A stretch of DNA of 64,000 bases, taken from contig CAXFZM010000186.1 of assembly GCA_964007475.1 (NCBI GenBank), positions 124,001 through 188,000 of the forward strand, read 5' to 3'. This DNA is from Hybos culiciformis. Taxonomy: Eukaryota > Arthropoda > Insecta > Diptera > Hybotidae. The position numbers and the translations under genes are program-made. This document shows, piece after piece, positions 38,807-63,190 of this stretch. The notes beneath the pieces are model-generated. The model was given only the letters and a program-made list of their open reading frames with translations. It was not told the DNA's origin and did no database searches. Each line of letters opens with the position of its first letter. The first letter of the stretch is position 1.

Positions 38807-40327
38807 TGTTATGATTAATTTTAAGGTTGATTACGGGGGGTGTACATAAATACAAAGATTCTGAGCTCAAGATGAACTCATGAAGATTTTTATCATATCT
38901 TATGATAAAAGAGAAATTGGTGAAAGTAGCGGCAATAGAAAGTGCTCTACTTTCAACTATGAATCTGGTGTTGAGTCCACTGTCTAAGGACATCCTGTTC
39001 AAAGGCTGGGTCTAAGCTCGTCGGTGGGTGGGTAAGGACAGTGAACACCAGAGGGTTCATAACATAGTTTATAGGATGTCTCTGATAAAAGGTTTAAAAT
39101 TGAGATAATAGCAAAAAAAGAAAAAAAAGGAAACCCCGACCAAAAATAAAAATAAACATTTTAAAATTAAATGACTATGTTGTCATTCTTCAGCTTATGG
39201 CTATGGCCATCTTGAGCTGGACCTTACTTCAGCATTTCAATGTACCTGTTAGGACCTGTGGATGTGAATTTAGTGTAAAGACATTTTCTTTTATTCTGTT
39301 TACATTAAATTTATTAAAAAGTTAAAAAAATTTATAAGCTTAAATAAAACTTAATTACAGCAGTTTGGAATTGTTCTTCATTTACAATGGTTGAAAAATA
39401 TTTCTGTTTGTAATCTTGTATTATAGGATTTTTATTTTACTATTTCCTATTTCATATATCATTTATTAAATATTAGTTTCATCTAAAAAATTTTTATTTG
39501 TAATGATTTAAAGTTTTAATTTACTTTATCATATATATATAAACATTTTCTTTTGAAAAAATTTTTTTTTTTTTTATAGTATTTTTACTATTTTTTTTAC
39601 TATTTGCCTACTTTTGAGGACTTAATTCTGTTTGTTTTTGTTGCCGACAGGCGTCTTCACCCCAATGTTATGGTATGTGGTGGCGCTTTTTAGGTCTGTT
39701 TTCTCCTAGTGGTGGCTTTAAAAACCTTGTCGGTGGGTAAAAAAAAATTTCTTGCTTTTTGCTTTATGATTGTAGAATTTTTTTTAACATGCCGTTGTGG
39801 TTTTTTTTTTTTTTGTTTTTATTTTTTTTTTGAAAATATAAGAAAATAGAATAAAAAATTAGTTTTGTTATTTATAGATAATAAAATTAGTAAGAAGTTT
39901 ATATTGATACAAGTGTCAACCATCCAATAAAAAAATCTTTCTTCAGTCGGTTATAAATTTTGTTCGGCGGCTCGCTGATGATTTTTGTGTTGGGTGGTAA
40001 CATTAAGTTCGATATTGATACGTATTACTTTTTTATACGTGTTAAAACTAAAAAGTGTTTTTTTTTTTATTCGGTGTAAAAAATTTTGTGTTAAAAAAAA
40101 ATTTTGTTTTTTTATTTAATTATTAAAAAATTTTTAAAAAGTTTTCGTATATTTTTTTTTTATTTTTAAATATCTCGGTTAAAAGGTGAAATAGGTAAGT
40201 TTTTTTTGTCTATGAAAAATTTCCTTTTATAAATTTCCTTTTTTTTTTTTTCTTGAATAAAAATTTTTTTTGGGTTGGTTCTTTTTTTTTCTAAAATTAT
40301 ATTTTAAAAAATTTTTCTTTTCAGATT

Positions 40328-40868
40328 ATGAATCGTTGGGATTTTCCAATTGTCGTTCCTTATAGGATTTGTTGGCGCTGTGGCCAAAAAGGTCATCTGT
40401 GGCGTCAGTGTGATGCCCAGGTGGTCGACGATTTAAAGGACACTCGTGACGAGTGTTACGGTTGTGGGAGGAAGGTGCACAAGGGCACCTGCTCCTATAC
40501 TTATGTAAGTATATTTTTTTATTTTTTTTTTATATAATTTTTTTATATATATATATATATATTTTTTTTTTTTTTCAGTATCGCTCGTCCCTTTGGTGTC
40601 AAAGATGTGGGAGTAATCTCCATCTTATCACCGAATGTGACTTTTGTTGGCAGTGTGGGTTAGACCACAGAGATGGAGTTCATCGGGGACCTGAATGTGG
40701 TCAATGTCTTCGGCAGGGACATTATACCTGGACATGTCCTTGGATGTACGAGAATGAGTCTGCTGACTCAGGAGTTGAAGATCCAGGTAAGTTTTATTTT
40801 ATATATATTTATATGATATTTATTTTTTATTTTTTTTATTTTTGTTTTCAGTGATTAATGAAGAATAG
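40328..40868 (+). CDS. Spliced multi-zinc-knuckle protein encoded in the long repeat
   Basis: Predicted exons are 40328-40504, 40579-40786 and 40852-40868, with GTAAGT donors and T-rich CAG acceptors and both junctions in phase, giving 133 aa. A noncoding first exon probably ends at 40193 (GTAAGT) and joins at 40325. The protein is a string of zinc knuckles: CWRCGQKGHLWRQC, the variant CYGCGRKVHKGTC, CQRCGSNLHLITEC and CGQCLRQGHYTWTC, plus a CWQCG pair. Such domains bind single-stranded nucleic acid, as in retroviral nucleocapsid. It runs opposite to gag-pol-env. A regulatory or nucleocapsid-like role is inference; expression is unproven. Confidence 0.6.
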
Positions 40869-40884
40869 GAGGTGAATAAGAAAA

Positions 40885-40968
40885 GTGGATTAGGCCTATA
40901 GGGGACACCACTCTAAAAAAAACGCGCCTATTTCTCTACCTCATATAAGGTGGTGTGGAAAAGAGAAA
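40885..40968 (+). ncRNA. Structured RNA motif, copy 1 in unit A
   Basis: A GTGG...CCAC hairpin (40885-40911) is followed by a linker ending ACGCGCC. A second stem closes with TTTCTCT (40931-40937) pairing AGAGAAA (40962-40968) around ACCTCATATAAGGT, itself a small hairpin. A second copy lies 416 bp downstream. It lies in the predicted last exon, just after the zinc-knuckle stop codon. Confidence 0.55.
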
Positions 40969-41034
40969 GTTTCTTTTGGGTAAGTTTTTTTTTTAAAAAA
41001 TTAATAAAATTTCTTTTCTTTTCTTTTTTTTTAG

Positions 41035-41154
41035 TTTCCTTCAAGTTCCAAGATGTTAGAAAATTTTATGTGTGACTTTCCAGTCCATTTTAGATGTATT
41101 ACCAAAAACATTCCTTGCGGCTTGGAAGCAATGACGGCGTTCAGCTGTCATTTG
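41035..41154 (+). other. Predicted downstream exon with short ORF
   Basis: A T-rich acceptor (TTTTTTTTAG) precedes it and TTTG/GTAAGT follows it. A Met codon at 41053 opens a 34-codon Cys-containing frame up to the donor, but joining the next predicted acceptor (41516) meets a stop after three codons. It may be a noncoding exon or a short peptide. Confidence 0.3.
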
Positions 41155-41300
41155 GTAAGTATATTTTTTTTTGTTCATTTCTTTGGCTTGTGAAAGTCAT
41201 TAAAAATTTTTAAAATAATTAAAAAATAAAAATTTTAAAAAAATTTGGAAAGAAAAAAAAGGTAATTTATAGAAAAATTTTAAATTGTAAAAAAAAAAAA

Positions 41301-41388
41301 GTGGATTATGCCTCTTGGGGATACCACTATAAAAAAAACGCGCCGAGCTCCCTACCTCATATAAGGTGGTGTGGAAACGGGAGCATGG
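41301..41388 (+). ncRNA. Structured RNA motif, copy 2 in unit A
   Basis: Same layout as copy 1: GTGG...CCAC hairpin (41301-41327), ACGCGCC linker, then a stem now formed by GCTCCC (41347-41352) and GGGAGC (41379-41384) around the identical ACCTCATATAAGGT and GGTGTGGAAA core. The stem sequence differs from copy 1 on both sides, keeping the pairing. A further perfect 9-bp hairpin follows at 41402-41426. Confidence 0.55.
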
Positions 41389-41535
41389 CAATATAAAAAT
41401 TTGAAGTCTCTGTGGTGGAGACTTCATCTTTTTCTTCGATTTTTTTGTACATCTGATATTATTAAATAAGAAAAATAAAATAAATTTTAAAAATTTTTTA
41501 AAAAAAGAATTTCAGAAACAACTGTAATTTAGTAA

Positions 41536-41851
41536 GTGGTTCTCCGCTTCCGTCCAAGAAAGGTAAAAAAGGCAACTCGAAAAATCCCAGAAGATAAATT
41601 AACAGAAATAAGAAATCATATTGAAAATTTTCCCTGCATTGATCCAGTACAGTACAAATATATTCATTCCTGATCGTTATTGTAAAAATAAAAATAAAAA
41701 ATTTATAATGATTTTACCTAAAATAAATAATGCCCCAGCTTGTGCTGGAATTTCGAAAGAAAAGAAAAAAGATCTTCAGTCGATGTTGCAATGGATGCCC
41801 ATTGAAGACGTCGAGTTTTATAACGTACTATTAAAAATAAATAATGAATAA
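41536..41851 (+). pseudogene. Relic of an insect transposon-type ORF in the long repeat
   Basis: Two fragments in different frames: 41536-41673 (contains LTEIRNHIENFP) and 41708-41851 (contains ISKEKKKDLQSM and EDVEFYNVLL). Both resemble, from memory, pieces of a widespread family of insect transposase-like proteins, where an IR.HI...P motif and a downstream ISK.K..DL...FY..L motif occur in this order. Most of the gene between them is missing. The matching copy in unit B is at 60865-61180. Assignment is tentative. Confidence 0.3.
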
Positions 41852-42970
41852 TTTGATAAATAATATTCATGGTTGTGAAAACTATAATAATTTTCATTTG
41901 AATAGTATTCATCTGATTTTTTTTTTTTTTTTAAAATCATAATAATAATTAATTGTGAGACAATGTTAAGCTTTTCGTCTTTTTAAAAAAAAATTTAGTT
42001 CACATTTTTTTTATTTTTGAATATACATAGGTAGGTATTAAATTTTTGAAATCATTATTTAAAAAAGAAAATAATTGAAAAACATTGGAAGTCTTTTTTT
42101 CATTAAAATTTAGAAGTATTTGCTTTTAAATCACTTTACATTAATTTGCATAGTATTGAAAACAGTGCATTAAGAAGAGTTATTGCATGTTGTTAAATCG
42201 CTTCTTGGTATCATTATGAAATTTTTAAAGTTATCTAAGGCATAATATTTTACTGTAAAATTATTGAGAGACAACATTAAACAAATAAAAAACAGGAAAA
42301 TTTTATTGGAATATTATAAATTATAAAATGAGTGTAAGTACAAACGAAAAAATTAAGAGAAAGAAATATATTACTATTAATTACAAAAGCGAAAAAATAT
42401 TTCATAAAAAGAAAATTCAACACATCATCTGAGCTATTATTTAAAAAAAAATAATAATATTTTGTTGTTTTTTTTTTTGTTGTTTCAATTCATTTATCTA
42501 TTTTTTTTATTTAATAAATAGTTTTTTTTTTTTATAAATTATAGCATTTTTGTTCTATCTTTATGGCTTTAATTGATATGTTTTAAAATAATTCTGTATG
42601 TTCCCATTTGTCCTATATAAAAAAACTTGTTCAATCTCCACTTTTTGCTACTTTTTGAAACTAAAAGTGAGTATTTGTATGAAATATTGTTCAATGTCCA
42701 TTTTGGTATTTTTTTTTCGTTAATTTTTTAAAAATATATTTTCAATTGTTTTTTCATTTTTTTTAATTAGAATTAGTTAAAGTTTATTCTAAAAATAATA
42801 AAGAACGTTTAATATGCATTTAAACTGAGTCAATTTTATGATAAAGACAAAAAACCCTCTCCTGTAAAATTTAGTTTTTGTGACATTGAACAAATAGGAA
42901 CTCCACCGACGATTTGTTATTTGTTTTGCTTTCTTAAAATTTATTACTTTTTTATGACCGTACAAACAGA
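41852..42970. other. Noncoding interior of unit A
   Basis: AT-rich with long T and A runs; no ORF or RNA gene seen. The corresponding part of unit B (61181-62300) is almost identical. Confidence 0.5.
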
Positions 42971-43591
42971 CTAAAAAGCTCCACCACATACCATAACATT
43001 GGGGTGAAGACGCCTGTCGGCAACAAAAACAAACAGAATTAAGTCCTCAAAAGTAGGCAAATAGTAAAAAAAATAGGAAAAATACTATAAAAAAAAAAAA
43101 AAAATTTTTCAAAAGAAAATGTTTATATATATATGATAAAGTAAATTAAAACTTTAAATCATTACAAGTAAAAATTTTTTAGATGAAACTAATATTTAAT
43201 AAATGATATATGAAATAGGAAATAGTAAAATAAAAATCCTATAATACAAGATTACAAACAGAAATATTTTTCAACCATTGTAAATGAAGAACAATTCCAA
43301 ACTGCTGTAATTAAGTTTTATTTAAGCTTATAAATTTTTTTAACTTTTTAATAAATTTAATGTAAACAGAATAAAAGAAAATGTCTTTACACTAAATTCA
43401 CATCCACAGGTCCTAACAGGTACATTGAAATGCTGAAGTAAGGTCCAGCTCAAGATGGCCATAGCCATAAGCTGAAGAATGACAACATAGTCATTTAATT
43501 TTAAAATGTTTATTTTTATTTTTGGTCGGGGTTTCCTTTTTTTTCTTTTTTTGCTATTATCTCAATTTTAAACCTTTTATCAGAGACATCC

Positions 43592-43626
43592 TATAAACTA
43601 TGTTATGAACCCTCTGGTGTTCACTG
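43592..43626 (+). promoter_or_regulatory. Putative outward promoter in arm L2
   Basis: TATAAA (43592-43597) lies 29 bases before TTCACTG, an initiator-like sequence at 43620. Transcription from there would give about 237 nt before the end of the repeat and then the tRNA-Lys primer site, sensible for an R-U5 segment. The same sequence occurs in all four arms. Placement is by motif only. Confidence 0.3.
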
Positions 43627-43860
43627 TCCTTACCCACCCACCGACGAGCTTAGACCCAGCCTTTGAACAGGATGTCCTTAGACAGTGGACTCAACACCAG
43701 ATTCATAGTTGAAAGTAGAGCACTTTCTATTGCCGCTACTTTCACCAATTTCTCTTTTATCATAAGATATGATAAAAATCTTCATGAGTTCATCTTGAGC
43801 TCAGAATCTTTGTATTTATGTACACCCCCCGTAATCAACCTTAAAATTAATCATAACAAA

Positions 43861-43881
43861 TGGCGCCCAACGTGGGGCTCG
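43861..43881 (+). other. Primer binding site for tRNA-Lys, plus strand
   Basis: Two bases after the repeat end, 21 consecutive bases starting TGGCGCCCAACGTGG are complementary to the 3' end of insect tRNA-Lys(CUU), as recalled. It is oriented for a plus-strand retroviral RNA, opposite to gag-pol-env. The same site follows unit B at 63191-63211. Confidence 0.75.
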
Positions 43882-45009
43882 TAGATGCAGGAATTTGATG
43901 GAAGCTGGACATCACCTGGAGGTGATGGTAAGTATTTTTTTTTTTTTATATTTTTTCCGGTCTCGGTCTTTAGGGATGGGGGATTTAAAGACTTGATTTG
44001 GGAAGCCCGTGGGAGAAAAGGTGGCGGAAGGCCTCGCCCGAAGGTCCACGCCGATTTTTTTTTTCGTCCTTAAGACTTAGGTTTTTTTTTATAAAAAAAT
44101 TTTGTCAAAAAAAAATTTGTTTGACAGTTTCAAAGATATATAAAAGGATAAATATCACTGGATATTTATAAATGTGCAAATTTTAGTTTGTAATTTTATA
44201 AATATCTGGCTGGATATTTATAATCGTGCAATTTTTCTTTAAAAAATTTTATTTATTTTAGTACAAAATTTTTTTTTTATTTTTATTTTTTAGGTGCAAT
44301 GGCATCAGTTCCTGATCTTTCTTGTTTTAGGTAGCCATCTTAGGGGTCGAGGATAGCTGCATCTCCCACAATGGAAGTTTTAAGAAAATATATATATATT
44401 TAAGAATATTTATTAAAATTATTTATTTTATTTTTAAGAAATTTATTTTATTTTTAATTTATTTTTAGGAAATTTAATTTATTTTTAAGAAATTTAATTT
44501 CTCGCGAACGGTGTGCGTAAAAGTTTGAAATTAGGGTATTGGATTCGAAGCCAAAGGACTAAAATACAAAAAAAAAATTGTACTTGAAATAAACTAGAGA
44601 CAAAAAAATAATTTAATGAAACGACCGTTTTGCTCTAGAGTTGAAAATATACTTAATTTATTTTTATATGGTAAAATATTATTTATGATTTACAAAAAAA
44701 GTTTTTTAAGAGATTATTAATTGTACAAAATTTTAAAGAGAATTTTAATACAAAGGCAATTATAAAAATTGAGACAAAAATAAAAATTATTACTACGAAT
44801 ATTAATACAAATATAATAATAAAAATTATCAAGAAATGCAAACGAAATTGGACCCGAAATTTCCTGTACAGAAAAATTTTATATTTTGTATTCTTGGATA
44901 CAATTTCGTTTGCATAAAAAATTTTATCAGTGCTGAATTGCATATTACATTTTTTATGCGATTCAAATAAAATACGAAATACAAAGTAAAATTTTATGTG
45001 CAATATTTT
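43882..45009. other. Core edge behind the plus-strand primer site
   Basis: A Met codon at 43888 opens MQEFDGSWTSPGGDG and meets a GTAAGT donor at 43929, so 43859-43928 looks like a leader exon; a possible acceptor is the T-rich TTTTTTAG near 44293. The remainder is AT-rich with repeated AAGAAATTTAATTTATTTTT units (about 44430-44512). Perfect 15-bp inverted repeats ATGCAAACGAAATTG lie at 44836-44850 and 44901-44915. No long ORF. Confidence 0.4.
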
Positions 45010-45070
45010 ATTTGATTTGTGAGTTGAAATTGTTTTGTAACATCTAACAATTTCAACTCACAAATCAAAT
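45010..45070. repeat. Perfect 25-bp inverted repeat with 11-base loop
   Basis: 45010-45034 (beginning ATTTGATTTGTGAGTTG) is the exact reverse complement of 45046-45070. It would form a strong hairpin or cruciform in RNA or DNA from either strand. Confidence 0.9.
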
Positions 45071-45090
45071 TGTAACATGTAACAATTTTT

Positions 45091-45165
45091 AAGAAATTTA
45101 CTTTATTTTTAAGAAATTTACTTTATTTTTAAGAAATTTACTTTATTTTTAAGAAATTTAATTTA
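45091..45165. repeat. 20-bp tandem repeat
   Basis: AAGAAATTTACTTTATTTTT is repeated three times and then partially. The interval 45166-45540 after it is T-rich, with no gene seen. Confidence 0.85.
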
Positions 45166-45540
45166 TAAAACTCTTTTTTTTTGTTAAGTGTTTGTCTGTT
45201 TGTCTGTTAGTCTTGGGTTTTCTTTGGTCTTTTCTTTTTTTTTTTTTTTTGTTTTGAAGTGCTGGTTTTTTTTTTTTCTTTGTTGTTTTACCAAGTCTCT
45301 GGTGAAAAGTGGAGAAATTTTCTTGGACCACTTTCACCAATAAGGCTTGGTAAAAAAAAATTTTTATTATCAAAAAAAAATGTTTTTGTTCTTCCGCTGG
45401 CAAAAAAAAAAGGAAATTCTTTCAAAAAAATTTTTCGTGGTTGACTCTTGTATCATTTTCTTTCTTTTTTCTTTTTTTTTTTAGTAGGAAAAAAAATCTA
45501 ATTTTTTTTTTTTTTTAGTTAAGAATCCATTAGGATGGTT

Positions 45541-45936
45541 CGTCACTGGTCTGTTTTTCTCGGTTCCTAGCCATCCGGGTACCGCGCGCATTGGGTGGCT
45601 AGGGAACGACCTGTGACGTCCTTCCTCTGTATCGGTTCCTCTGACATACACCGGGATCAAGGCTGCTGATTGCTCAGAGCTCTTAGATCGAGGGGTATGG
45701 CATGAGAACCAGATGCAGCACCACAACGTAGTATGGGTTTCCAAAGGGAAACTCCATGTGGTGAATGGCATTGTCTTAGCTTTGGATTCTTGGATAGACC
45801 CAAGAATCCTCCACTAAGAGCGGGCTTTTGAGATTCACTAGAAGTGGCAGTTGTTTGGCTCACTTTCTAGTGAATACTCTGTTGGACTTGTTTCCATAGC
45901 TTAGTGGAATAACTCCACCAAGTTATGGAAAGCAAG
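45541..45936. ncRNA. Chain of six hairpins, candidate structured RNA
   Basis: Within ~400 bases of GC-richer sequence, six hairpins follow one another: 45541-45618 (outer CGTCAC/GTGACG, inner TAGCCA/TGGCTA), 45634-45710 (GGTTC...GAACC), 45719-45763 (CACCAC/GTGGTG), 45774-45819 (TCTTAG/CTAAGA plus a perfect 10-bp GGATTCTTGG/CCAAGAATCC), 45833-45875 (perfect 11-bp ATTCACTAGAA/TTCTAGTGAAT) and 45887-45936 (CTTG/CAAG, TTCCATA/TATGGAA, GTGG/CCAC). The strand cannot be told. It lies downstream of the minus-strand ORFs and inside the plus-strand leader region, so it could be a 3' element of the gag-env RNA or a leader element of the opposite RNA. Short open frames across it are not credible genes. 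Confidence 0.6.
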
Positions 45937-46520
45937 TGCCAACTCCTAAAGAAAAGGAAAAAAAAATTTAGTTAGTCATATTTACCTTTATGATTGTAGA
46001 ATTTTTTTTTAACATGAAATTGTTGTAAAAATGCATTTCTTTTTATATGTTTTAGAAATGAATTTTTACCACCACTTTCATCATAAAAAAAAATTCTCGT
46101 CAAAAAAAAATTCTTAATGTAGATCAGTATATTGTAAAATTTGCGTTTTTCTTTTTTTTTTCTATATTTTTTTATGTTCTTGACCTACCTATATTTCACA
46201 TAAAGAAAAAATTGGTTTTTTTTTTTTTGTTAAAATTACAATTTATTTTTATTCTTTCTAGGTATAAAAATTCTGATGCAATTTTTTTATTTTTTTCATC
46301 ATCTCTACTAGTTTTTTTTTTCTAATTCCTAATCTAATATAGATTCACCGCAACAAATTAGGTTCAATCTCATTCTTGTATGTAAAAGTATGGATTGAAT
46401 CTAAAACGGGTGTTCTTGTTATAAATTTAAAAGCTAATTTGTATTTTTGAAAAGTTATTTATTTTTTTTTTTTTTTTTTTTTTTAATTTTGGTGGGGCTC
46501 GAAGCCGCCCTGAGATAGTC
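45937..46520. other. Noncoding stretch after the minus-strand ORFs
   Basis: T- and A-rich. A 28-base segment starting TTATGATTGTAGAA (45988-46016) recurs inside each long repeat (39764-39791). No purine tract adjacent to a TG/CA terminus was found. Confidence 0.4.
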
Positions 46521-47009
46521 TCATGCTCTATTCTCTTCATAATACTTTCTTTTTGCGGAACTGGGTTGTTTTTCCGTTGTTCCTGGAAACGTTTTTATCG
46601 TATTGTTTCTTTTATCTATTATTCTAACAGCCCCCGTTTTATTACATCTTAACGTGATCTTTCCGTTTCTTGTTATCCTCACTCGAATCATTGAGATTGG
46701 GCCTTGAGTCATGAATCCATAGGCTGCTTTCTCTTTGGTTGGTCTTATTTCTACACCTTCAAATATTGCTTCTAGCATCGGTGTAGGATTTAAACCTTCT
46801 TCTATTGACACTCGTGGTATTACCTTTGGTTTAAGTGGGGCTAATTTTGGAGGTTCTGTTATTTTTGGAATTTTTGTTTCTCTTTCTACTGTTTTCTTCC
46901 AGAACTTTTCGATTTTCATTGGCTTTGGATTCTCATCTTTTGTGTACCATCGGATTTCTCCAGTACTTGTTTTGATATTGCCAATTAGCTTTGTATCTAG
47001 GTCAGACAT
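46521..47009 (-). CDS. Small basic ORF downstream of env (accessory protein candidate)
   Basis: The 162-aa protein begins MSDLDTKLIGNI, is rich in Lys, Arg and Pro (repeated KP/PK dipeptides in residues 50-75) and ends in a Lys/Arg-rich tail. No membrane segment, signal peptide or known motif is visible. It lies 127 bases after env on the same strand, where complex retroviruses and some insect errantiviruses carry extra genes. The frame is intact despite surrounding AT-rich noncoding sequence, which argues for selection. Its role is unknown; a nucleic-acid-binding or regulatory function would be a guess from charge only. Confidence 0.6.
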   Translation of the reverse strand: MSDLDTKLIGNIKTSTGEIRWYTKDENPKPMKIEKFWKKTVERETKIPKITEPPKLAPLKPKVIPRVSIEEGLNPTPMLEAIFEGVEIRPTKEKAAYGFMTQGPISMIRVRITRNGKITLRCNKTGAVRIIDKRNNTIKTFPGTTEKQPSSAKRKYYEENRA

Positions 47010-47136
47010 CTGAAAGATTGTTTATGTTAGATCTTTGAAAAACCATAACCTTTGTTCCCAAAGAAATTCTTTATTAGTGAAGAAAATAGAGACAGAGAGT
47101 TTATAGAAATAGAAACAGAATAGAATTAAAATATTG

Positions 47137-49431: not shown

Positions 49432-49708
49432 TAAGAAAAAAACTTTTATTTACCCTATATATAATTATGTTTTTTTTTTTTTTTTTTTTGTTTATATATA
49501 TATTGTATGTATTATTTGTTTTACTTATTCTATATTTTAATTATTTTTTTTTTCTTTAACTTAGTAATTCTACAAGAAAATCTTTTGCTTAAATTACTTA
49601 CGGTTGCTAAAAATATATTTTTTTTTCTTTATTTTGTTTTTTTATTATTTTTGAATTTTTTTTTTTGTTTTAGTTTTTTTTTTTTTTGTTTTATTAAAAT
49701 TTTTTTTG

Positions 49709-49744
<36 letters not shown>

Positions 49745-52441: not shown

Positions 52442-53538
52442 GCACTATTACTTTCTTCGATTACCCCCATTTCTAGCATCCTATCTATTTCTGCATACAT
52501 AAGGTCTTGTATTGCAGGGGAGATTGGGTAATGTTTTTGTTTGATTGGTTCATTGTCCCCTGTGTCTATTATGTGTTCTTCTAGAGAGGTGCATCCTAGA
52601 CCTTCCTCGGCGTATGAGGGAAACATTTTTTTAATGGTGTCTAACTGTATTTGTTCTCTTACTGTTAGATCATGGCTATTCGGATCCGTTTCGGATATTT
52701 CACTAATTGGGTTAAAAATTTGTGGAACTAAATCAAAGGCTTTCCAGAAATTAACTCCAAGATAAAGTTCTTGTGATAACTTCGGGACTACATGTATTTT
52801 TAAAATTTTGGTTTTGTTTTTGAAACTTAATGGAACTAAGATATATCCTATTATTTCAGTTTTACCGCCTGCTGCAGTTATTACTGATTCTTTAATTTTA
52901 TGTAGTTTGAGATTTGTTTCTTCATCTATCCATTTCTTGTCTTTTCCTAGACAGGAGATAGATGCTCCTGAATCTAATAGTCCCATTAAGGGTTGTTCCC
53001 CTATTTTAATTCTTATATATGGTCTATTATCATCAGGGATTTGTATTATCGAGGAAAGAATCTTTTTCTTGTCGTCTTTAGCCTCTGTATAATATCTGTT
53101 TTCTCTTTTTGCTCCCACTGTTCGTCTATTTGATATTTTTTTTTTATATATATTTAGTCTTACTTCACTTATGTTGCTAAATGTTACAATTTCTGCTCTC
53201 CTTTTATCATATCTTTGTTTTCTGATATGATAAGGAGGCCATTGTTTTCTTTCTTTAGGGGGAGCTTCGTCTATTTCAGTTCTTTGTAATATTTTTGTAA
53301 CTTTGATCTCTTTTTCTTCAGTTACTTCATTTTGTTCCTTTTCTTTATTTTGCTCAATTTTTTTGTTTTCTAATATTTCTATATTTTTATTATATTTCTT
53401 TATTATAACTAAGTAATCCTTAATTTTATTTATATCTAATTTTGAATTTTGGCCTTTGTCAACATCTGTGGGTGGCCTTTCCACAGACTGGGAATTTAGT
53501 TTCCCTGAAAACGAACTTCTTTGTGGCAATTTCTGCAC
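52291..53538 (-). CDS. pol: Pol, N-terminal part: protease and RT fingers
   Basis: The 415-aa frame starts inside the end of gag in the -1 frame, so its first Met is probably not used; entry is by ribosomal frameshifting at the GGGAAAC site. It contains a Lys/Glu-rich linker and an aspartic protease with active-site motif LLDSGAS (about 187-193) that would process Gag and Pol. The RT N-terminal region follows (MLEMGVIEES, SPVVLVRKPG, CLDSRKVND). The reading leaves the pol frame at the homopolymer near 52355, after which the RT continues in the next ORF. Confidence 0.85.
   Translation of the reverse strand: MQKLPQRSSFSGKLNSQSVERPPTDVDKGQNSKLDINKIKDYLVIIKKYNKNIEILENKKIEQNKEKEQNEVTEEKEIKVTKILQRTEIDEAPPKERKQWPPYHIRKQRYDKRRAEIVTFSNISEVRLNIYKKKISNRRTVGAKRENRYYTEAKDDKKKILSSIIQIPDDNRPYIRIKIGEQPLMGLLDSGASISCLGKDKKWIDEETNLKLHKIKESVITAAGGKTEIIGYILVPLSFKNKTKILKIHVVPKLSQELYLGVNFWKAFDLVPQIFNPISEISETDPNSHDLTVREQIQLDTIKKMFPSYAEEGLGCTSLEEHIIDTGDNEPIKQKHYPISPAIQDLMYAEIDRMLEMGVIEESNSAWTSPVVLVRKPGKNRLCLDSRKVNDLTKKTHIHYPIYKDYSQESIRQNI
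53465..53505 (-). promoter_or_regulatory. gag-pol -1 ribosomal frameshift signal
   Basis: The minus strand reads G GGA AAC then TAA, with the gag stop (53496-53498) directly after the heptamer GGGAAAC (53499-53505), a classical X XXY YYZ slippery site. Twelve bases later TCTGTGG (53481-53487) pairs perfectly with CCACAGA (53465-53471) in a short-loop hairpin. Slipping back one base reads straight into the pol frame. Confidence 0.85.
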
Positions 53539-55100
53539 GTTGGAGAATATTCATTGGGCATTCCGCACTTATAACAGAATACTCTCTTGTAGTTTTCTTG
53601 ACAGTCCATATATCCATGTCCTGGCTTCTCACAGTTCCAGCAACGCAAGTTCTTTTCAGGTGTTGTTGGTCTTGAAGGCTGCTGTTTTACTTTAGCTGGC
53701 TCTTCATATTTCTTTTTAGTCATGTTTTGTGTTTGTTTTATAGCAGGTTGTACTGCTTCCAATTCATAATATTCGCTGTCTAGGTATTCATCATACATAT
53801 TGTCGTCCTCGTACTGGATTTCTTGTACTCTGTATTTATTTCTTTCTTGACTTGGTCTTGCATACCCGTTCTCTTCACGGTGTAGTCTATATGACAGCTT
53901 GGTTTCTAGATTCGAGTCTATTAACCTAAATTTAGATCTTAAAGCATTCAAATTGTCTATTTCGGAGGCTTGAAAAGGTTCTTTATACTCTCTTCTTACG
54001 TTTCGTCTTATCCTGTTGGTCAGACGACGTTCATTTAAAGGCTCGTCTAGTTTTTGATTCAGGGCATCCATTGCTTGGATAAATTCCCTCCATGTTTCGC
54101 CTTGTTTTTGTTTTCTATTTATCATTTCGGTTAACTTGACGTCTTCGTCAACCGAGTCAGCATATTCTTCTATTAGAGCTGTGCTGAATGCCCTCCAAGT
54201 AGTATCCTCTTTGTCATGCTTTCTGAAATAGCTAAAGTACCATCTTTTAACTATGGGATCTAGAAGTTGGTGAAAATTGTTAATTAGCATCCGGTCTGAA
54301 ATATTGTGGTCTATTCTCTGATTGTTTACATCTTTTACGAAGTTTTCAACTTCTTCCCCGTTAAAGAATAGTCCAAACCGTTTTTTTAAATCTAGCTCAC
54401 GAGTATACCGGTGCTCGTGTTCATATGCCGGATATCTTTCTCGGTCTTCATTTCTTACCGGATTTCTACGTGTATGTTTCGGAGCTGGGGACATATCTCT
54501 AGCTCTAGTGCTAGATCTTAGTTGTGACCCTCCTGTTCTTGAGTTTCCGCTTCCTGACTCTTGTTGTCTTGCAGAAGCTTGTCTTGAATTCCTTCGCCCT
54601 TTTGTTTTTGGAATTTCTAGAGAATCTAGACTATTTTCCCCAGGGCTAGTTGATCTTGGTCTCATTGAAGGGGTTGGTTGTTTAGACAAATAATCTGCCA
54701 CAACCGGTTGGATTTTCTTCTCCAAATTCTCTATCATGGCCATTAATTTGGTCATTGGTTCTGCTTGGTTGTTTGTTCCTTCTGGTTCTTTTTGTTGTTT
54801 TGGGAACTCATAGTTCCTAGCGGTTGATAATGGAGGCAAATTCTTTTTTGATCTTGATACTGCTTGTAGTATCTCTTCTTGCCTGTCCTTTATAAATATT
54901 GGGATATGTTCTTGTTGTTGTCTATTTGGATCTACCCAGGTAGCCATATTCATTCCCCTGTTTGGGACTTTTTGTCTTTGCTTACTTTTGTATAGGTAAG
55001 CTCCTTCGTCATTGGTGGCTGATTCGGAGTCTAATACCGATGATGGGACACTTATTAATTTTTTTATTGCTCCTGTATTTTTCTTTGGTTCTTCTTCCAC
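53496..55100 (-). CDS. gag: Gag polyprotein (capsid and nucleocapsid)
   Basis: The 534-aa frame has a Pro/Ser/Arg-rich N-terminal third, a helical capsid-like domain at about 235-410 (RWYFSYFRKH, WRAFSTALIEEYAD, WREFIQAMDALNQKL) and a C-terminal zinc knuckle CWNCEKPGHGYMDC (about 487-500), followed by a second Cys-rich unit CYKCG...CRNC. Capsid assembles the particle and the knuckles bind genomic RNA. The stop lies at the -1 frameshift signal into pol. Upstream of its first Met the same frame stays open and overlaps the 152-aa ORF, so the true N-terminus is probably further upstream. Confidence 0.85.
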   Translation of the reverse strand: MEEEPKKNTGAIKKLISVPSSVLDSESATNDEGAYLYKSKQRQKVPNRGMNMATWVDPNRQQQEHIPIFIKDRQEEILQAVSRSKKNLPPLSTARNYEFPKQQKEPEGTNNQAEPMTKLMAMIENLEKKIQPVVADYLSKQPTPSMRPRSTSPGENSLDSLEIPKTKGRRNSRQASARQQESGSGNSRTGGSQLRSSTRARDMSPAPKHTRRNPVRNEDRERYPAYEHEHRYTRELDLKKRFGLFFNGEEVENFVKDVNNQRIDHNISDRMLINNFHQLLDPIVKRWYFSYFRKHDKEDTTWRAFSTALIEEYADSVDEDVKLTEMINRKQKQGETWREFIQAMDALNQKLDEPLNERRLTNRIRRNVRREYKEPFQASEIDNLNALRSKFRLIDSNLETKLSYRLHREENGYARPSQERNKYRVQEIQYEDDNMYDEYLDSEYYELEAVQPAIKQTQNMTKKKYEEPAKVKQQPSRPTTPEKNLRCWNCEKPGHGYMDCQENYKRVFCYKCGMPNEYSPTCRNCHKEVRFQGN

Positions 55101-55156
55101 TTCGGTTATTGATAGATCTGCGAAAGGATCCGTTAGTGTTTCTCCTATGTTTTGCT

Positions 55157-55615
55157 CTAGCTCGATTGTTCTGCTCTTTTTGTGAGTAGTTTTTCTATTG
55201 CTACTACTACTACTTCTATACAGTCTTTTAGGCGTGTTAATACGTCTACTTGTTTGCTTTCCCCTTGTCCACCCCTTGAGGTAAATTCTAATATTTTACA
55301 CTTGTGGTGGGTTAACCTACTTACTAAAGGTGCTAAGTTTTCTAATACAGGGGTTTCAAGCGATGCGTTTGCTTGATTAATTACTTTAAATGCTTCTTTT
55401 ATGGCTTTTTCTTTCTCTTCTGTTGACCAGAGAGAACTTTTGCCTGAGCCTGCTAGTACTCTTACGCTCGGATCTTTCGTTTCGCGCTCTAAACATTTCC
55501 TTAACTTTGTCATTGAGTTTTGGTCAGCATAGGAAATCTGATTTCTTTCATATTCAAATTTTAATTCGTCTATTTCCAGATGTTCTGGGACGATATATAA
55601 TTTATTGTCTGACAT
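55157..55615 (-). CDS. Pre-gag ORF, probably the Gag N-terminus (matrix-like)
   Basis: The 152-aa frame is the first after the leader and primer site. It is charged and mostly helical in character, without a zinc knuckle or membrane segment. It ends at 55157, but the gag frame (-1 relative to it) is already open from about 55290 and continues without a stop into the main gag ORF. The overlap contains A-rich stretches (GAAAAAC, ACAAAAAG) where slippage could occur. Either a second -1 frameshift joins the two, or an indel has split one gag ORF. Homology is not recognised. Confidence 0.6.
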   Translation of the reverse strand: MSDNKLYIVPEHLEIDELKFEYERNQISYADQNSMTKLRKCLERETKDPSVRVLAGSGKSSLWSTEEKEKAIKEAFKVINQANASLETPVLENLAPLVSRLTHHKCKILEFTSRGGQGESKQVDVLTRLKDCIEVVVVAIEKLLTKRAEQSS

Positions 55616-56006
55616 TTTTATTATGTTTTTTCTCTTTTATCCTTAAAATTATATTGTTTATATATATATATATCTAAATTTCAACACTGTTGTGTTCTTG
55701 ACTAATATATAGGTGTGAATTCTATATTTACAGTTTGTTTGTGTTTTTTTTTTTGTAAAAAAAAAAAAAAAAATTTATTTTTTTGTTCTTTTAAATTTGT
55801 TAAAAAGAAATTTTTTAAATTTTAGGTTTGTTACCTTGAATAAAAGAATATTAAAGTTTGTTGTTTTGATTTTAATAAAAAGAATGTTTTTTTATTTAAA
55901 CTTGTTGTGTTTGTTTTTTTTCAATTTTTTTAGGTCCTTTTAGGTATTTGAAATGCTTCGTTGGTAGAGATAGATAAAAAATTTTTTAGGGAAAGAAGAA
56001 TTTTGT
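55616..56006 (-). other. Gag leader, gag-proximal part
   Basis: AT-rich, with T and A runs and TTGTTGTTT/TTTGTTGTG segments; no ORF or clear structure seen. Confidence 0.4.
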
Positions 56007-56132: not shown

Positions 56133-56163
<31 letters not shown>

Positions 56164-56467: not shown

Positions 56468-56663
56468 CTTTTTTATTTTTATTTTTATTTATGGGGTTTC
56501 ATTTTTTATAGGGTAAAACTCATTATTTATTCTCTATACTTTTTCTATATATCTATATATAAAAAATTAAGGTTCTGTAAGATTTTATTTCTCACAAAAC
56601 TTGTAAAGGGCATAGACTCTTTAAGCCTTTGCCTCTTTGAGTAGGGTATGACTCCTAGTCTTA

Positions 56664-56678
56664 CCACGTTGGGCGCCA
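56664..56678 (-). other. Primer binding site for tRNA-Lys, minus strand (gag-pol-env direction)
   Basis: Two bases after the repeat end, the minus strand reads TGGCGCCCAACGTGG, 15 bases complementary to the tRNA-Lys 3' end, then diverges where the plus-strand site at 43861 continues to match for six more. It is correctly placed for priming minus-strand cDNA on the gag-pol-env RNA. Confidence 0.75.
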
Positions 56679-56913
56679 TTTGTTATGATTAATTTTAAGG
56701 TTGATTACGGGGGGTGTACATAAATACAAAGATTCTGAGCTCAAGATGAACTCATGAAGATTTTTATCATATCTTATGATAAAAGAGAAATTGGTGAAAG
56801 TAGCGGCAATAGAAAGTGCTCTACTTTCAACTATGAATCTGGTGTTGAGTCCACTGTCTAAGGACATCCTGTTCAAAGGCTGGGTCTAAGCTCGTCGGTG
56901 GGTGGGTAAGGAC

Positions 56914-56947
56914 AGTGAACACCAGAGGGTTCATAACATAGTTTATA
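56914..56947 (-). promoter_or_regulatory. Putative promoter for gag-pol-env RNA in arm L3
   Basis: Mirror image of the L2 site: TATAAA on the minus strand (56942-56947) and TTCACT at 56914-56919. A transcript starting there would run about 238 nt to the repeat end and then the minus-strand primer site. Motif-based only. Confidence 0.3.
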
Positions 56948-57387
56948 GGATGTCTCTGATAAAAGGTTTAAAATTGAGATAATAGCAAAAAAAGAAAAAA
57001 AAGGAAACCCCGACCAAAAATAAAAATAAACATTTTAAAATTAAATGACTATGTTGTCATTCTTCAGCTTATGGCTATGGCCATCTTGAGCTGGACCTTA
57101 CTTCAGCATTTCAATGTACCTGTTAGGACCTGTGGATGTGAATTTAGTGTAAAGACATTTTCTTTTATTCTGTTTACATTAAATTTATTAAAAAGTTAAA
57201 AAAATTTATAAGCTTAAATAAAACTTAATTACAGCAGTTTGGAATTGTTCTTCATTTACAATGGTTGAAAAATATTTCTGTTTGTAATCTTGTATTATAG
57301 GATTTTTATTTTACAATTTCCTATTTCATATATCATTTATTAAATATTAGTTTCATCTAAAAAATTTTTATTTGTAATGATTTAAAG

Positions 57388-58188
57388 CACTGATGCCCAA
57401 GCCTATGCTCGCGAGCAAAATTTTTTTTTTTTATACTCAAATTCATAGGAATAAAAAAATGTGTAATCATTTTCAATGAAAAAAAAAATCGTATACTCGC
57501 ATATAAAATCGTATACTCATTTCATTATTTCGTATGCTCACTTTGATTCACAAAAAAAAAAAAATTTTTTTTTCCTTTTTTATTTCTAGTCTTTTTAAAT
57601 ACACTGTTAAAAATATAAAATTTATATTTCTTACTCTTTTAGACTGGAAGGTCTTTTATACAATTTTATTTTAATTTTTTAAAATCCCGAAGGAATCACT
57701 TTTCATATAAAATATTATTAGAGTACGATTTAAATCAATTGACCGTTGAGTTTTTATGAAAGGGTAAAATTTGAATAAATTTTTAAATCAAGCTTTTTTC
57801 TTCAATCATTTCTCCTTAATTTTATATCTCTATCCCTTTCTGGCTCATACAAATTTCTGTATTAAGTAAAACAAAAAACTGACAGAAAAATCTTCTGTTT
57901 TAAAAGGAAAAGGAAAGCTTTTAAAAAAAATTTGTCAGTTAATGTGAATCGTAATATATCAGCTTAAGAAGCATTTTTGAAATTTTTTAGGATTGAATTA
58001 AAACTGAAAAATAAAACGTAATTTTATTCAAAAAACATACAACACACAATTTAGTTTTCTTAATTATGTCTTTAGAAATAATTTTTTTACAGTGAATGTT
58101 TTTTAAATAAAAATTGCGTTGGTGTGATATGAAAAAAACCTTAGTATTTTCTATATGCTCTAAATTAGTTCTAATTTGGGCTTCGCTG
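57388..58188. mobile_element. Non-autonomous hAT element in arm L3
   Basis: An 801-bp insertion absent from unit A. The ends CACTGATGCCCAAGCC and (reverse complement) CAGCGAAGCCCAAATT are hAT-like, and the 8-bp target duplication ATTTAAAG is perfect (57380-57387 and 58189-58196). Comparison with the empty site in unit A confirms the boundaries. No transposase. Confidence 0.92.
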
Positions 58189-58217
58189 ATTTAAAGTTTT
58201 AATTTACTTTATCATAT

Positions 58218-58979
58218 CGCTCCTCGCATTCTATAATATTGTAAGTGCACTTACAACATAATAGAAAGATGTGAAAACTAAGAAGCTCATGTAAATGAGC
58301 ATCTACTGTATAAATTTTATAGTTCTACGATATGTCCTTAAAAAGTTACATTAAAAAAAAGACTTACAATATTGTGCAATGTGCCCAAAAACTCCCGTAA
58401 ATCAGACTGTATGTAGACTTAAAATAAGTTAGAACGAATTGTTCAATTTATTTTCTTTATAAGTAGACTTACAATATGAATGTCCTTTAATCTTCAAATT
58501 ATTTGGTTTTTAAGTGCACTTACAATGTATATACTTATTTTATTAAAATTATAAGTAATAGTTACAACATTTGTGAACGACAAGCAAATTTAAAACTGTC
58601 CTAACATTAATATTGTAAGTATAACTTACAATAATAGAAGTATGAAATTGTGAAATTATTTATATTGTAAGTATACTTATCACATTATAGCTTCAATTTT
58701 TTTTCAAAATTATTGGTGTAGGTAATCTTACAATCAACTTCTACTGATCTTGTCCATTCTATTATATTAGTTTCTTAAATTACAACTTAACTACTTATAT
58801 TAGCTCAAAATGTTACTTATGTACTCATAAAGCATTACTTTCTTCTTAATTTTGTATAAAAATATATGCTTTACAGAAAACAGGAACAGAAAACGAAGTG
58901 ACAGAAAAAAAAAAATCTTAAAAATGCTCTCCTGAAAACCTGCATTTTTGACTTACAATATTATAGAATGCGAGAAGCG
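58218..58979. mobile_element. MITE with 28-bp terminal inverted repeats in arm L3
   Basis: A 762-bp insertion absent from unit A. The terminal repeats begin CGCTYCTCGCATTC, run through CTATAATATTGTAAG and differ at one base. The empty site in A is consistent with a 4-bp ATAT duplication. The interior contains repeated TTGTAAGT and ACTTACAA motifs facing each other, so it can fold extensively. The superfamily is not recognised. Confidence 0.85.
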
Positions 58980-59779
58980 ATATATATATAAACATTTTCT
59001 TTTGAAAAATTTTTTTTTTTTTTTATAGTATTTTTACTATTTTTTTTACTATTTGCCTACTTTTGAGGACTTAATTCTGTTTGTTTTTGTTGCCGACAGG
59101 CGTCTTCACCCCAATGTTATGGTATGTGGTGGCGCTTTTTAGGTCTGTTTTCTCCTAGTGGTGGCTTTAAAAACCTTGTCGGTGGGTAAAAAAAAATTTC
59201 TTGCTCTTTGCTTTATGATTGTAGAATTTTTTTTTAACATGCCGTTGTGGTTTTTTTTTTTTTATTTTTTTTTTTTTTTTGAAAATATAAGAAAATAGAA
59301 TAAAAAATTAGTTTTGTTATTTATAGATAATAAAATTAGTAAGAAGTTTATATTGATACAAGTGTCAACCATCCAATAAAAAAATCTTTCTTCAGCCGGT
59401 TATAAATTTTGTTCGGCGGCTCGCTGATGATTTTTGTGTTGGGTGGTAACATTAAGTTCGATATTGATACGTATTACTTTTTTATACGTGTTAAAACTAA
59501 AAAGTGTTTTTTTTTTTATTCGGTGTAAAAAATTTTGTGTTAAAAAAAAATTTTGTTTTTTTATTTAATTATTAAAAAATTTTTAAAAAGTTTTCGTATA
59601 TTTTTTTTTTATTTTTAAATATCTCGGTTATTAAAAGGTGAAATAGGTAAGTTTTTTTTGTCTATGAAAAATTTCCTTTTATAAATTTCCTTTTTTTTTT
59701 TTTCTTGAATAAAAATTTTTTTTGGGTTGGTTCTTTTTTTTTCTAAAATTATATTTTAAAAAATTTTTCTTTTCAGATT

Positions 59780-60135
59780 ATGAATCGTTGGGATTTTCCA
59801 ATTGTCGTTCCTTATAGGATTTGTTGGCGCTGTGGCCAAAAAGGTCATCTGTGGCGTCAGTGTGATGCCCAGGTGGTCGACGATTTAAAGGACACTCGTG
59901 ACGAGTGTTACGGTTGTGGGAGGAAGGTGCACAAGGGCACCTGCTCCTATACTTATGTAAGTATATTTTTTTATTTTTTTTTTATATAATTTTTTTATAT
60001 ATATATATATATATTTTTTTTTTTTTTCAGTATCGCTCGTCCCTTTGGTGTCAAAGATGTGGGAGTAATCTCCATCTTATCACCGAATGTGACTTTTGTT
60101 GGCAGTGTGGGTTAGACCACAGAGATGGAGTTCAT
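59780..60135 (+). pseudogene. Zinc-knuckle gene copy in unit B, truncated by a deletion
   Basis: The first coding exon (59780-59956) and the start of the second (from 60031) match unit A. A deletion corresponding to 40684-40806 of unit A removes the last zinc knuckle, the acidic C-terminus and the splice donor. The remaining frame runs into intron-like sequence. A shortened protein with about three knuckles is the most this copy could make. Confidence 0.6.
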
Positions 60136-60213
60136 ATTTATATGATATTTATTTTTATTTTTTTTTATTTTTGTTTTCAGTGATTAATGAAGAATAGGAG
60201 GTGAATAAGAAAA

Positions 60214-60297
60214 GTGGATTAGGCCTATAGGGGACACCACTCTAAAAAAAACGCGCCTATTTCTCTACCTCATATAAGGTGGTGTGGAAAAGAGAAA
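60214..60297 (+). ncRNA. Structured RNA motif, copy 1 in unit B
   Basis: Identical in layout and stem sequence to the motif at 40885-40968. Confidence 0.5.
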
Positions 60298-60629
60298 GTT
60301 TCTTTTGGGTAAGTTTTTTTTTTTAAAAATTAATAAAATTTCTTTTCTTTTCTTTTTTTTTAGTTTCCTTCAAGTTCCAAGATGTTAGAAAATTTTATGT
60401 GTGACTTTCCAGTCCATTTTAGATGTATTACCAAAAACATTCCTTGCGGCTTGGCAGCAATGACGGCGTTCAGCTGTCATTTGGTAAGTATATTTTTTTT
60501 TGTTCATTTCTTTGGCTTGTGAAAGTCATTAAAAATTTTTAAAATAATTAAAAAATAAAAATTTTAAAAAAATTTGGAAAGAAAAAAAAGGTAATTTATA
60601 GAAAAATTTTAAATTGTAAAAAAAAAAAA

Positions 60630-60718
60630 GTGGATTATGCCTCTTGGGGATACCACTATAAAAAAAACGCGCCGAGCTCCCTACCTCATATAAGGTGGTG
60701 TGGAAACGGGAGCATGGC
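60630..60718 (+). ncRNA. Structured RNA motif, copy 2 in unit B
   Basis: Matches the motif at 41301-41388, with the GCTCCC/GGGAGC stem. Confidence 0.5.
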
Positions 60719-60864
60719 AATATAAAAATTTGAAGTCTCTGTGGTGGAGACTTCATCTTTTTCTTCGATTTTTTTGTACATCTGATATTATTAAATAAGA
60801 AAAATAAAATAAATTTTAAAAATTTTTTAAAAAAATAATTTCAGAAACAACTGTAATTTAGTAA

Positions 60865-61180
60865 GTGGTTCTCCGCTTCCGTCCAAGAAAGGTAAAAAAG
60901 GCAACTCGAAAAATCCCAGAAGATAAATTAACAGAAATAAGAAATCATATTGAAAATTTTCCCTGCATTGATCCAGTACAGTACAAATATATTCATTCCT
61001 GATCGTTATTGTAAAAATAAAAATAAAAAATTTATAATGATTTTACCTAAAATAAATAATGCCCCAGCTTGTGCTGGAATTTCGAAAGAAAAGAAAAAAG
61101 ATCTTCAGTCGATGTTGCAATGGATGCCCATTGAAGACGTCGAGTTTTATAACGTACTATTAAAAATAAATAATGAATAA
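60865..61180 (+). pseudogene. Transposon-type ORF relic, unit B copy
   Basis: Second copy of the relic at 41536-41851, with the same frame breaks. The decay therefore predates the duplication of the long repeat. Confidence 0.3.
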
Positions 61181-62300
61181 TTTGATAAATAATATTCATG
61201 GTTGTGAAAACTATAATAATTTTCATTTGAATAGTATTCATCTGATTTTTTTTTTTTTTTTAAAATCATAATAATAATTAATTGTGAGACAATGTTAAGC
61301 TTTTCGTCTTTTTAAAAGAAAATTTAGTTCACATTTTTTTTATTTTTGAATATACATAGGTAGGTATTAAATTTTTGAAATCATTATTTAAAAAAGAAAA
61401 TAATTGAAAAACATTGGAAGTCTTTTTTTCATTAAAATTTAGAAGTATTTGCTTTTAAATCACTTTACATTAATTTGCATAGTATTGAAAACAGTGCATT
61501 AAGAAGAGTTATTGCATGTTGTTAAATCGCTTCTTGGTATCATTATGAAATTTTTAAAGTTATCTAAGGCATAATATTTTACTGTAAAATTATTGAGAGA
61601 CAACATTAAACAAATAAAAAACAGGAAAATTTTATTGGAATATTATAAATTATAAAATGAGTGTAAGTACAAACGAAAAAATTAAGAGAAAGAAATATAT
61701 TACTATTAATTACAAAAGCGAAAAAATATTTCATAAAAAGAAAATTCAACACATCATCTGAGCTATTATTTAAAAAAAAATAATAATATTTTGTTGTTTT
61801 TTTTTTTGTTGTTTCAATTCATTTATCTATTTTTTTTATTTAATAAATAGTTTTTTTTTTTTATAAATTATAACATTTTTGTTCTATCTTTATGGCTTTA
61901 ATTGATATGTTTTAAAATAATTCTGTATGTTCCCATTTGTCCTATATAAAAAAACTTGTTCAATCTCCACTTTTTGCTACTTTTTGAAACTAAAAGTGAG
62001 TATTTGTATGAAATATTGTTCAATGTCCATTTTGGTATTTTTTTTTTGTTAATTTTTTAAAAATATATTTTCTATTGTTTTTTCATTTTTTTTTAATTAG
62101 AATTAGTTAAAGTTTATTCTAAAAATAATAAAGAACGTTTAATATGCATTTAAACTGAGTCAATTTTATGATAAAGACAAAAAACCCTCTCCTGTAAAAT
62201 TTAGTTTTTGTGACATTGAACAAATAGGAACTCCACCGACGATTTGTTATTTGTTTTGCTTTCTTAAAATTTATTACTTTTTTATGACCGTACAAACAGA
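61181..62300. other. Noncoding interior of unit B
   Basis: AT-rich, nearly identical to 41852-42970; no gene seen. Confidence 0.45.
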
Positions 62301-63190
62301 CTAAAAAGCTCCACCACATACCATAACATTGGGGTGAAGACGCCTGTCGGCAACAAAAACAAACAGAATTAAGTCCTCAAAAGTAGGCAAATAGTAAAAA
62401 AAATAGGAAAAATACTATAAAAAAAAAAAAAAAAATTTTCAAAAGAAAATGTTTATATATATATGATAAAGTAAATTAAAACTTTAAATCATTACAAGTA
62501 AAAATTTTTTAGATGAAACTAATATTTAATAAATGATATATGAAATAGGAAATAGTAAAATAAAAATCCTATAATACAAGATTACAAACAGAAATATTTT
62601 TCAACCATTGTAAATGAAGAACAATTCCAAACTGCTGTAATTAAGTTTTATTTAAGCTTATAAATTTTTTTAACTTTTTAATAAATTTAATGTAAACAGA
62701 ATAAAAGAAAATGTCTTTACACTAAATTCACATCCACAGGTCCTAACAGGTACATTGAAATGCTGAAGTAAGGTCCAGCTCAAGATGGCCATAGCCATAA
62801 GCTGAAGAATGACAACATAGTCATTTAATTTTAAAATGTTTATTTTTATTTTTGGTCGGGGTTTCCTTTTTTTTCTTTTTTTGCTATTATCTCAATTTTA
62901 AACCTTTTATCAGAGACATCCTATAAACTATGTTATGAACCCTCTGGTGTTCACTGTCCTTACCCACCCACCGACGAGCTTAGACCCAGCCTTTGAACAG
63001 GATGTCCTTAGACAGTGGACTCAACACCAGATTCATAGTTGAAAGTAGAGCACTTTCTATTGCCGCTACTTTCACCAATTTCTCTTTTATCATAAGATAT
63101 GATAAAAATCTTCATGAGTTCATCTTGAGCTCAGAATCTTTGTATTTATGTACACCCCCCGTAATCAACCTTAAAATTAATCATAACAAA

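What the first reader, a model, noticed from the sequence alone, without database searches (positions are those of the whole stretch)
38807..63188. Provirus flanked by giant repeats with inverted arms and inward-pointing primer sites at both ends
Each long direct repeat begins TGTTATGATTAATT and ends with the exact inverse, owing to ~0.89-kb inverted arms. A tRNA-Lys primer site lies two bases from the repeat end on both sides of the core: 43861 reading right, 56678 reading left. An ordinary LTR element has one primer site and a polypurine tract at the other end; no such tract was found next to either repeat. If the arms carry the promoter, RNAs could start from both ends, and each could be primed: an ambisense retroelement. 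Other readings are tandem proviruses whose real LTR is only the arm, with an inverted LTR-plus-leader captured inside, or a rearranged or misassembled locus.
Basis: partly seen in the sequence, partly recalled or inferred. Interest (0 to 1): 0.9.

Follow-up and report, generated by a model that had tools for sequence, protein, structure and literature searches.

The report
Provirus repeat holding its inverted copy
An old virus-like jumping element seems to have very long end repeats that each contain a backwards copy of such a repeat with its start signal, which makes an ordinary one-way element look as if it could be copied from both ends.

Summary
Partly confirmed. The long repeats, the ~0.89-kb inverted arms and the inward tRNA-Lys primer sites (PBSs) are real. 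But homology between the repeats does not stop at 43858/63188: it runs on at 99.4% to the window's last base (44412 = 64000). A third PBS, 18/18, lies at + 63191. So the plus-strand PBS occurs once per long repeat, while the minus-strand PBS (56678) and the genes occur once: the pattern of one ordinary minus-strand provirus whose LTR contains an inverted LTR, PBS and leader. A polypurine-tract candidate also turns up: the longest purine run before a TG outside the satellite (27 nt, next 14) ends at 45456, minus strand, after a strongly folded stretch. The bases that follow it have an inverted homologue at 39905, which marks a TG...CA unit 39905-43858. Best reading: a Ty3/gypsy-like provirus with an envelope-like ORF, gag and pol each split over two frames, and LTRs of ~6.65 kb that carry a nested inverted LTR holding exon-like zinc-knuckle ORFs. 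Ambisense replication is not needed (about 5%). The right LTR end and any target duplication lie outside the window and could not be fetched, so a tandem array is not excluded.

The parts
38807..45455 (-). Proposed 3' LTR of a minus-strand provirus (6649 bp): U3 start at 45455, U5 end at 38807. Direct repeat proven only for 38807-44412.
   Evidence: homology to 56681-64000; 45455 inferred from the purine run before TG.
56681..64000 (-). Proposed 5' LTR, cut by the window end
38807..39701 (-). Arm B of the left LTR (U5 end at 38807)
   Evidence: TG at 38807 directly after flank without homology to the core.
42964..43858 (+). Arm A of the left LTR, inverted copy of arm B (99.3%)
39905..43858 (+). 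Nested inverted LTR-like unit TG...CA (3954 bp)
   Evidence: Start shared with - 45455 (17 of 18 bases); end shared with the provirus's own U5 end and PBS.
39844..39904 (+). Remnant resembling the provirus's internal 3' end (purine tract degenerate)
   Evidence: 39844-39923 against - 45516-45437, score 39, maximum of 60 shuffles 31.
43861..43878 (+). PBS, 18/18, inside the left LTR
63191..63208 (+).
56661..56678 (-). PBS of the provirus, 15/18, running into a splice-donor-like GGTAAGA
43859..44412 (+). Nested leader (short ATG exon, GTAAGT), repeated at 63189-64000
45456..45482 (-). Polypurine-tract candidate, 27 purines (3 G) directly before TG
   Evidence: maximum of 1000 shuffles 22, 0 reach 27.
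45530..45975 (-). Strongly folded block before the purine tract
   Evidence: -183.7 kcal/mol over 446 nt.
53496..55636 (-). gag region in two frames (55636-55157 and 55295-53496)
   Evidence: Retrotrans_gag in the second ORF.
52291..53550 (-). Protease and start of RT
50012..52444 (-). RT, RNase H, integrase; the frame changes inside RT relative to the ORF before it
47137..49449 (-). 770-aa envelope-like ORF (RVKR site, hydrophobic segments near both ends), no relatives found
46521..47021 (-). 166-aa ORF, no family match
40295..40854 (+). Exon-like ORFs with CCHC motifs inside the nested LTR; a copy in the right LTR is cut by a ~121-bp deletion
   Evidence: zf-CCHC 20.4 bits, just under its cut-off 20.8.
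57388..58979 (.). Two later insertions in the right LTR (57388-58186 with a TGATTTAAAG duplication; 58218-58979 with ~28-bp terminal inverted repeats)

Best explanation
This is one minus-strand, Ty3/gypsy-like provirus with an envelope-like ORF. Minus-strand order: 5' LTR (56681 to beyond 64000), PBS at 56678, gag, protease, RT-RNase H-integrase, envelope-like ORF, 166-aa ORF, folded block, polypurine tract ending at 45456, 3' LTR 45455-38807. Each LTR is about 6.65 kb before later insertions. Its U3 holds an inverted piece of a related element: a remnant of that element's internal 3' end (39844-39904), its LTR (39905-43858), PBS and leader. Replication follows the usual path: transcription from arm B, first DNA strand primed by tRNA-Lys at - 56678, second strand primed from the purine tract at 45456. 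The plus-strand PBS is carried along inside U3 and so appears once per LTR. Inferred: the LTR boundary at 45455, the promoter position, the replication steps, and that the arms were made alike by template switching or gene conversion.
For: Homology 43872-44412 = 63460-64000, 3 of 541 columns differ, up to the window edge. Plus-strand PBS at 43861 and 63191, minus-strand PBS only at 56678. 27-nt purine run directly before TG at - 45455: maximum of 1000 shuffles 22; next longest elsewhere outside the satellite 14 on the minus and 13 on the plus strand. Start of the proposed U3 recurs inverted at + 39905 and + 59354 and nowhere else from 24.5 kb on with up to 4 mismatches; similarity reaches ~60 bases upstream, above 60 of 60 shuffles. 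Arm-specific variants (3 substitutions, 1 gap) are shared by both LTRs, so arm-middle-arm was copied as a unit. Gene order, folded block and purine tract all lie on the minus strand.
Against: The right LTR end and any target duplication are outside the window; the genome search did not answer in 13 tries. The purine run is mostly A (3 G in 27) on an A-rich strand, and shuffles do not keep A tracts. The proposed LTR starts TGATACAAG, which mirrors the LTR end (TGTTATGAT inverted) in little more than TG. The nested PBS is better preserved (18/18) than the provirus's own (15/18). The folded block's strand preference was not tested, and 11 windows on the plus strand of 38807-44500 also had z below -3.
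Confidence: 0.75

Rival explanations
1. Tandem proviruses: the LTR really is 38807-43858, and the right LTR is followed by a second core, through LTR-LTR recombination or integration of a concatemer.
For: 63189-64000 matches the core next to the left LTR, which a second core would also do. 43858 and 63188 are clean ...CA ends two bases from a perfect PBS.
Against: Needs a second, unseen core; leaves 43858 without a purine tract; does not explain the inverted homologue at 39905.
Confidence: 0.13
2. Ambisense retroelement: tRNA-Lys primes RNAs from both strands, or primes both DNA strands.
For: PBSs face inward on both sides of the core; plus-strand exon-like ORFs with CCHC motifs lie in the LTR; a plus-oriented TG...CA unit 39905-43858 exists.
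Against: 43858 is not a repeat end; the purine tract before + 39905 is degenerate; the gag, protease, RT-integrase and envelope-like ORFs all lie on the minus strand. No RNA data.
Confidence: 0.05
3. Misassembly or chimaeric joining in a repeat-rich region.
For: Repeats of ~99% over 5 kb are prone to misjoins; no reads were available.
Against: The arm-PBS-leader junction occurs twice, in copies that differ by 19 substitutions in 5468 aligned sites (my count: 28 rows listed, 8 dropped as aligned to the other leader unit, 1 position listed twice), two insertions and a ~121-bp deletion.
Confidence: 0.05

Closest known systems
Ty3/gypsy LTR retrotransposons (Metaviridae)
   Same: Protease, RT, RNase H and integrase in that order; best solved match Ty3-G Gag-Pol, E 5.8e-85; only named homologue among the 120 listed is an RNA-directed DNA polymerase of Ceratitis capitata, 50% identical.
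   Different: LTR of ~6.65 kb (inferred) with a nested inverted LTR; gag and envelope-like ORFs without detectable relatives.
Insect endogenous retroviruses / Errantivirus (PMC12992720, abstract start and passages)
   Same: A gypsy-like element with an envelope-like ORF after pol.
   Different: Their Env is described as baculovirus-related (PMC12440569, first part); no Pfam family matched here.
Troyka (PMC12440569, first part of the text)
   Same: LTR retroelement of animals with gypsy-like Pol.
   Different: Troyka ends CG...CG with 3-bp duplications; here the ends are TG...CA.
Retroviruses with a tRNA-Lys1,2 PBS, such as SERV-2 (PMC8775094, passages)
   Same: The same 18-nt PBS.
   Different: RT and integrase score far higher with Ty3 than with retroviral chains; a shared PBS reflects the tRNA, not descent.

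Membership tests
Ty3/gypsy (Metaviridae) | Protease, RT, RNase H, integrase in this order | tested here: met
   (spread over two frames).
Ty3/gypsy (Metaviridae) | RT/IN closer to Ty3 than to retroviruses | tested here: met
   Ty3-G 289 bits; PFV integrase and MuLV-type RT chains 80 bits or less, Pr125Pol 88, an 'Enzymatic polyprotein' 139. No tree was built.
Ty3/gypsy (Metaviridae) | LTRs with TG...CA ends and 4-6 bp target duplication | tested here: inconclusive
   TG at 38807 and at 45455; right end outside the window.
Ty3/gypsy (Metaviridae) | PBS next to the 5' LTR and polypurine tract next to the 3' LTR | tested here: inconclusive
   PBS met; tract at 45456 fits, but the LTR edge there is inferred.
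Errantivirus / insect endogenous retrovirus | Env related to baculovirus F protein | tested here: not met
   No Pfam family at E 0.01, no homologue; a very divergent Env is not excluded.
Troyka | CG...CG ends | tested here: not met
   Ends are TG and CA.
Ambisense retroelement (hypothetical) | Repeat ends exactly at both inward PBSs | tested here: not met
   Homology continues past 43858/63188.
Ambisense retroelement (hypothetical) | Genomic RNAs from both strands | not testable with these tools
   No transcript data.

The most novel reading that the evidence does not exclude
The element carries two overlapping LTR sets in opposite directions that both work (minus 45455-38807, plus 39905-43858). 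tRNA-Lys primes a coding minus RNA and also a plus RNA, which reaches the zinc-knuckle ORFs of the downstream LTR by splicing from the nested leader. The near-identity of the arms and the perfect nested PBS would then be kept by use of both strands.
Probability: 0.05. Interest if true: 0.85.

Novelty: new variant of a known kind. Interest (0 to 1): 0.36.

Why it matters
It shows how an inverted LTR nested inside an LTR can imitate a two-primer, ambisense element, and which checks tell them apart: does homology stop at the proposed LTR end, is the PBS duplicated with the LTR, and where is the purine tract? If the ~6.65-kb LTR is confirmed, a very large LTR was copied into a new site while carrying an inverted LTR, a candidate antisense promoter and exon-like ORFs, beside an envelope-like ORF without known relatives.

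Tried and rejected
Other copies. Viral contigs gave no relative of the RT-IN ORF (2 pattern stretches), of the envelope-like ORF (1 stretch) or of alignment A1 (15 stretches), and no match to a degenerate LTR-end-plus-PBS pattern. Genome contigs gave 11 relatives among 28 pattern stretches, best-segment identity 25-36%, not examined further. No homologue of the envelope-like ORF (7994 candidates scored) or of the longer gag ORF (6536 candidates). RT-IN: 2826 homologues of 7992 scored, 120 listed. Rfam: no match at E up to 1 in 25-64 kb. Fold of the envelope-like ORF without an alignment: mean pLDDT 34, so no structure search was made.

Rejected. Arm alone as LTR: no TG at its inner end. U3 against U3 similarity: 50 against a maximum of 47 in 30 shuffles, A/T-rich, not used. 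Plus leader against minus leader: 14 of 30 shuffles reach the score. Minus leader against minus U3: 1 of 30 reaches it.

Literature. Ten searches. In the rows listed I saw no title or abstract start that describes a nested inverted LTR in an LTR or two inward PBSs; two searches listed only 15 of 71 and 12 of 3,194 papers, and the library is open access only. Seen: first part of PMC12440569 and PMC11673190; passages of PMC12992720, PMC2253517, PMC5371799 and PMC8775094.
Full report
Setting. The window is AT-rich eukaryotic DNA; the host was not identified. A minus-strand retroelement runs from 38807 to beyond the window end. I re-measured these and asked where the repeats really end.

Repeats. 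Self-comparison gives 38807-39513 = 56681-57387 (99.9%), 39531-40683 = 58980-60135 (99.1%), 40805-44103 = 60134-63431 (99.2%), and arms 38807-39701 against 43858-42964 (99.3%). It also gives 43872-44412 = 63460-64000 (99.4%), which stops only because the window stops. So 43858/63188 is not a repeat boundary. One search lists 28 differences; I drop 8 that come from alignment to the other leader unit and one position listed twice, which leaves 19 substitutions in 5468 aligned sites. The right copy also has two transposon-like insertions and lacks about 121 bp. A leader unit of about 258 bp is present twice on the right and once on the left.

Primer sites. The 18-mer TGGCGCCCAACGTGGGGC, given in print as complementary to tRNA-Lys1,2 (PMC8775094, passages), is 18/18 at + 43861 and + 63191 and 15/18 at - 56678. 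Apart from these, the best sites in the 64 kb have 5 mismatches. The plus site comes once per long repeat, the minus site once. A feature that is doubled with the LTR belongs to the LTR.

Purine tract. On the minus strand from the last ORF to the proven repeat (46517-44413) a run of 27 purines is directly followed by TG at 45455; the maximum in 1000 dinucleotide shuffles was 22, and the next longest in the window outside the satellite is 14. A looser scan of 46520-44001 (runs of 11 or more within 3 nt of TG) found only this one, and 3 runs of 12 in 10.1 kb of the core. Upstream of it lies a 446-nt stretch with a predicted energy of -183.7 kcal/mol. In Ty3, plus-strand synthesis starts from a tract just upstream of U3 (PMC5371799, passages), so I place the U3 start at 45455. 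Caveats: the run is mostly A on an A-rich strand; TGATACAAG mirrors the LTR's other end in little more than TG; the matching end of the right LTR is out of sight.

Nested inverted LTR. The first 18 bases after that tract recur with one difference at + 39905 and + 59354, and nowhere else from 24.5 kb on with up to 4 mismatches. The similarity reaches ~60 bases upstream (39844-39923 against - 45516-45437; score 39, maximum of 60 shuffles 31). On the plus strand this reads: remnant of an internal 3' end, LTR-like unit TG (39905) to CA (43858), two bases, PBS, leader. That is the order found across an LTR in a tandem array or a one-LTR circle. The tract before + 39905 is degenerate. Three substitutions and one gap separate A arms from B arms in both LTRs, so arm-middle-arm was copied into both LTRs as a unit. 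The arms are about 99% alike while the flanks of the nest are about 70% alike or not detectably related, so the arms were probably made alike by template switching or gene conversion. Their homology ends 15 bases into the PBS on one side and in U3 on the other.

Genes. Minus strand: gag in two frames, protease, RT-RNase H-integrase with a frame change inside RT, a 770-aa envelope-like ORF (RVKR site, hydrophobic segments near both ends, 9 N-glycosylation motifs), a 166-aa ORF. Ty3 Gag-Pol is the best solved match of the RT-IN ORF. The envelope-like ORF and the longer gag ORF have no detectable homologue, so 'envelope' rests on layout and motifs only. Inside the nested LTR, plus-strand ORFs with CCHC motifs are bounded by TTTTCAG and GTAAGT; zf-CCHC scores 20.4 bits, just under its cut-off of 20.8.

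Conclusion. The anatomy fits one ordinary minus-strand provirus with an extraordinary LTR. Against this stand the unseen right end, the better preserved nested PBS and the clean CA ends at 43858/63188; a tandem array stays possible (about 13%), an ambisense element unlikely (about 5%). I could not extend beyond 64000 or find another copy: the genome search did not answer in 13 tries, and the contig collections gave no close relative.

Noticed in passing
8.4-24.4 kb: A ~16-kb array of the trinucleotide TTG, with a perfect run of 11,268 bases at 9303-20570.
   Followed up: partly
56411-56055, minus strand: Three copies of a hairpin-like motif (CATGAGTGCAG...CTGTACATGCTG) in the provirus leader; the third differs in its inner stem in a paired manner. 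Possible packaging signals.
   Followed up: partly
40875-40961 and 41291-41377, plus strand, and copies in the right LTR: Two 87% identical blocks whose outer stem changes in a paired manner; no Rfam match.
   Followed up: partly
45530-45975, minus strand: A very stable predicted RNA fold before the purine tract, perhaps an RNA export element.
   Followed up: partly
24753-26186, plus strand: A separate integrase ORF of another gypsy-like element next to the array.
   Followed up: no
1070-6829: ORFs that read like LINE endonuclease/RT pieces on both strands (by eye; no family search).
   Followed up: no
63202-63691: The nested leader unit with its GTAAGT site is doubled in the right LTR, single in the left.
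   Followed up: partly
58218-58979: An insertion with ~28-bp terminal inverted repeats and internal TTACAA-rich repeats, MITE-like.
   Followed up: partly
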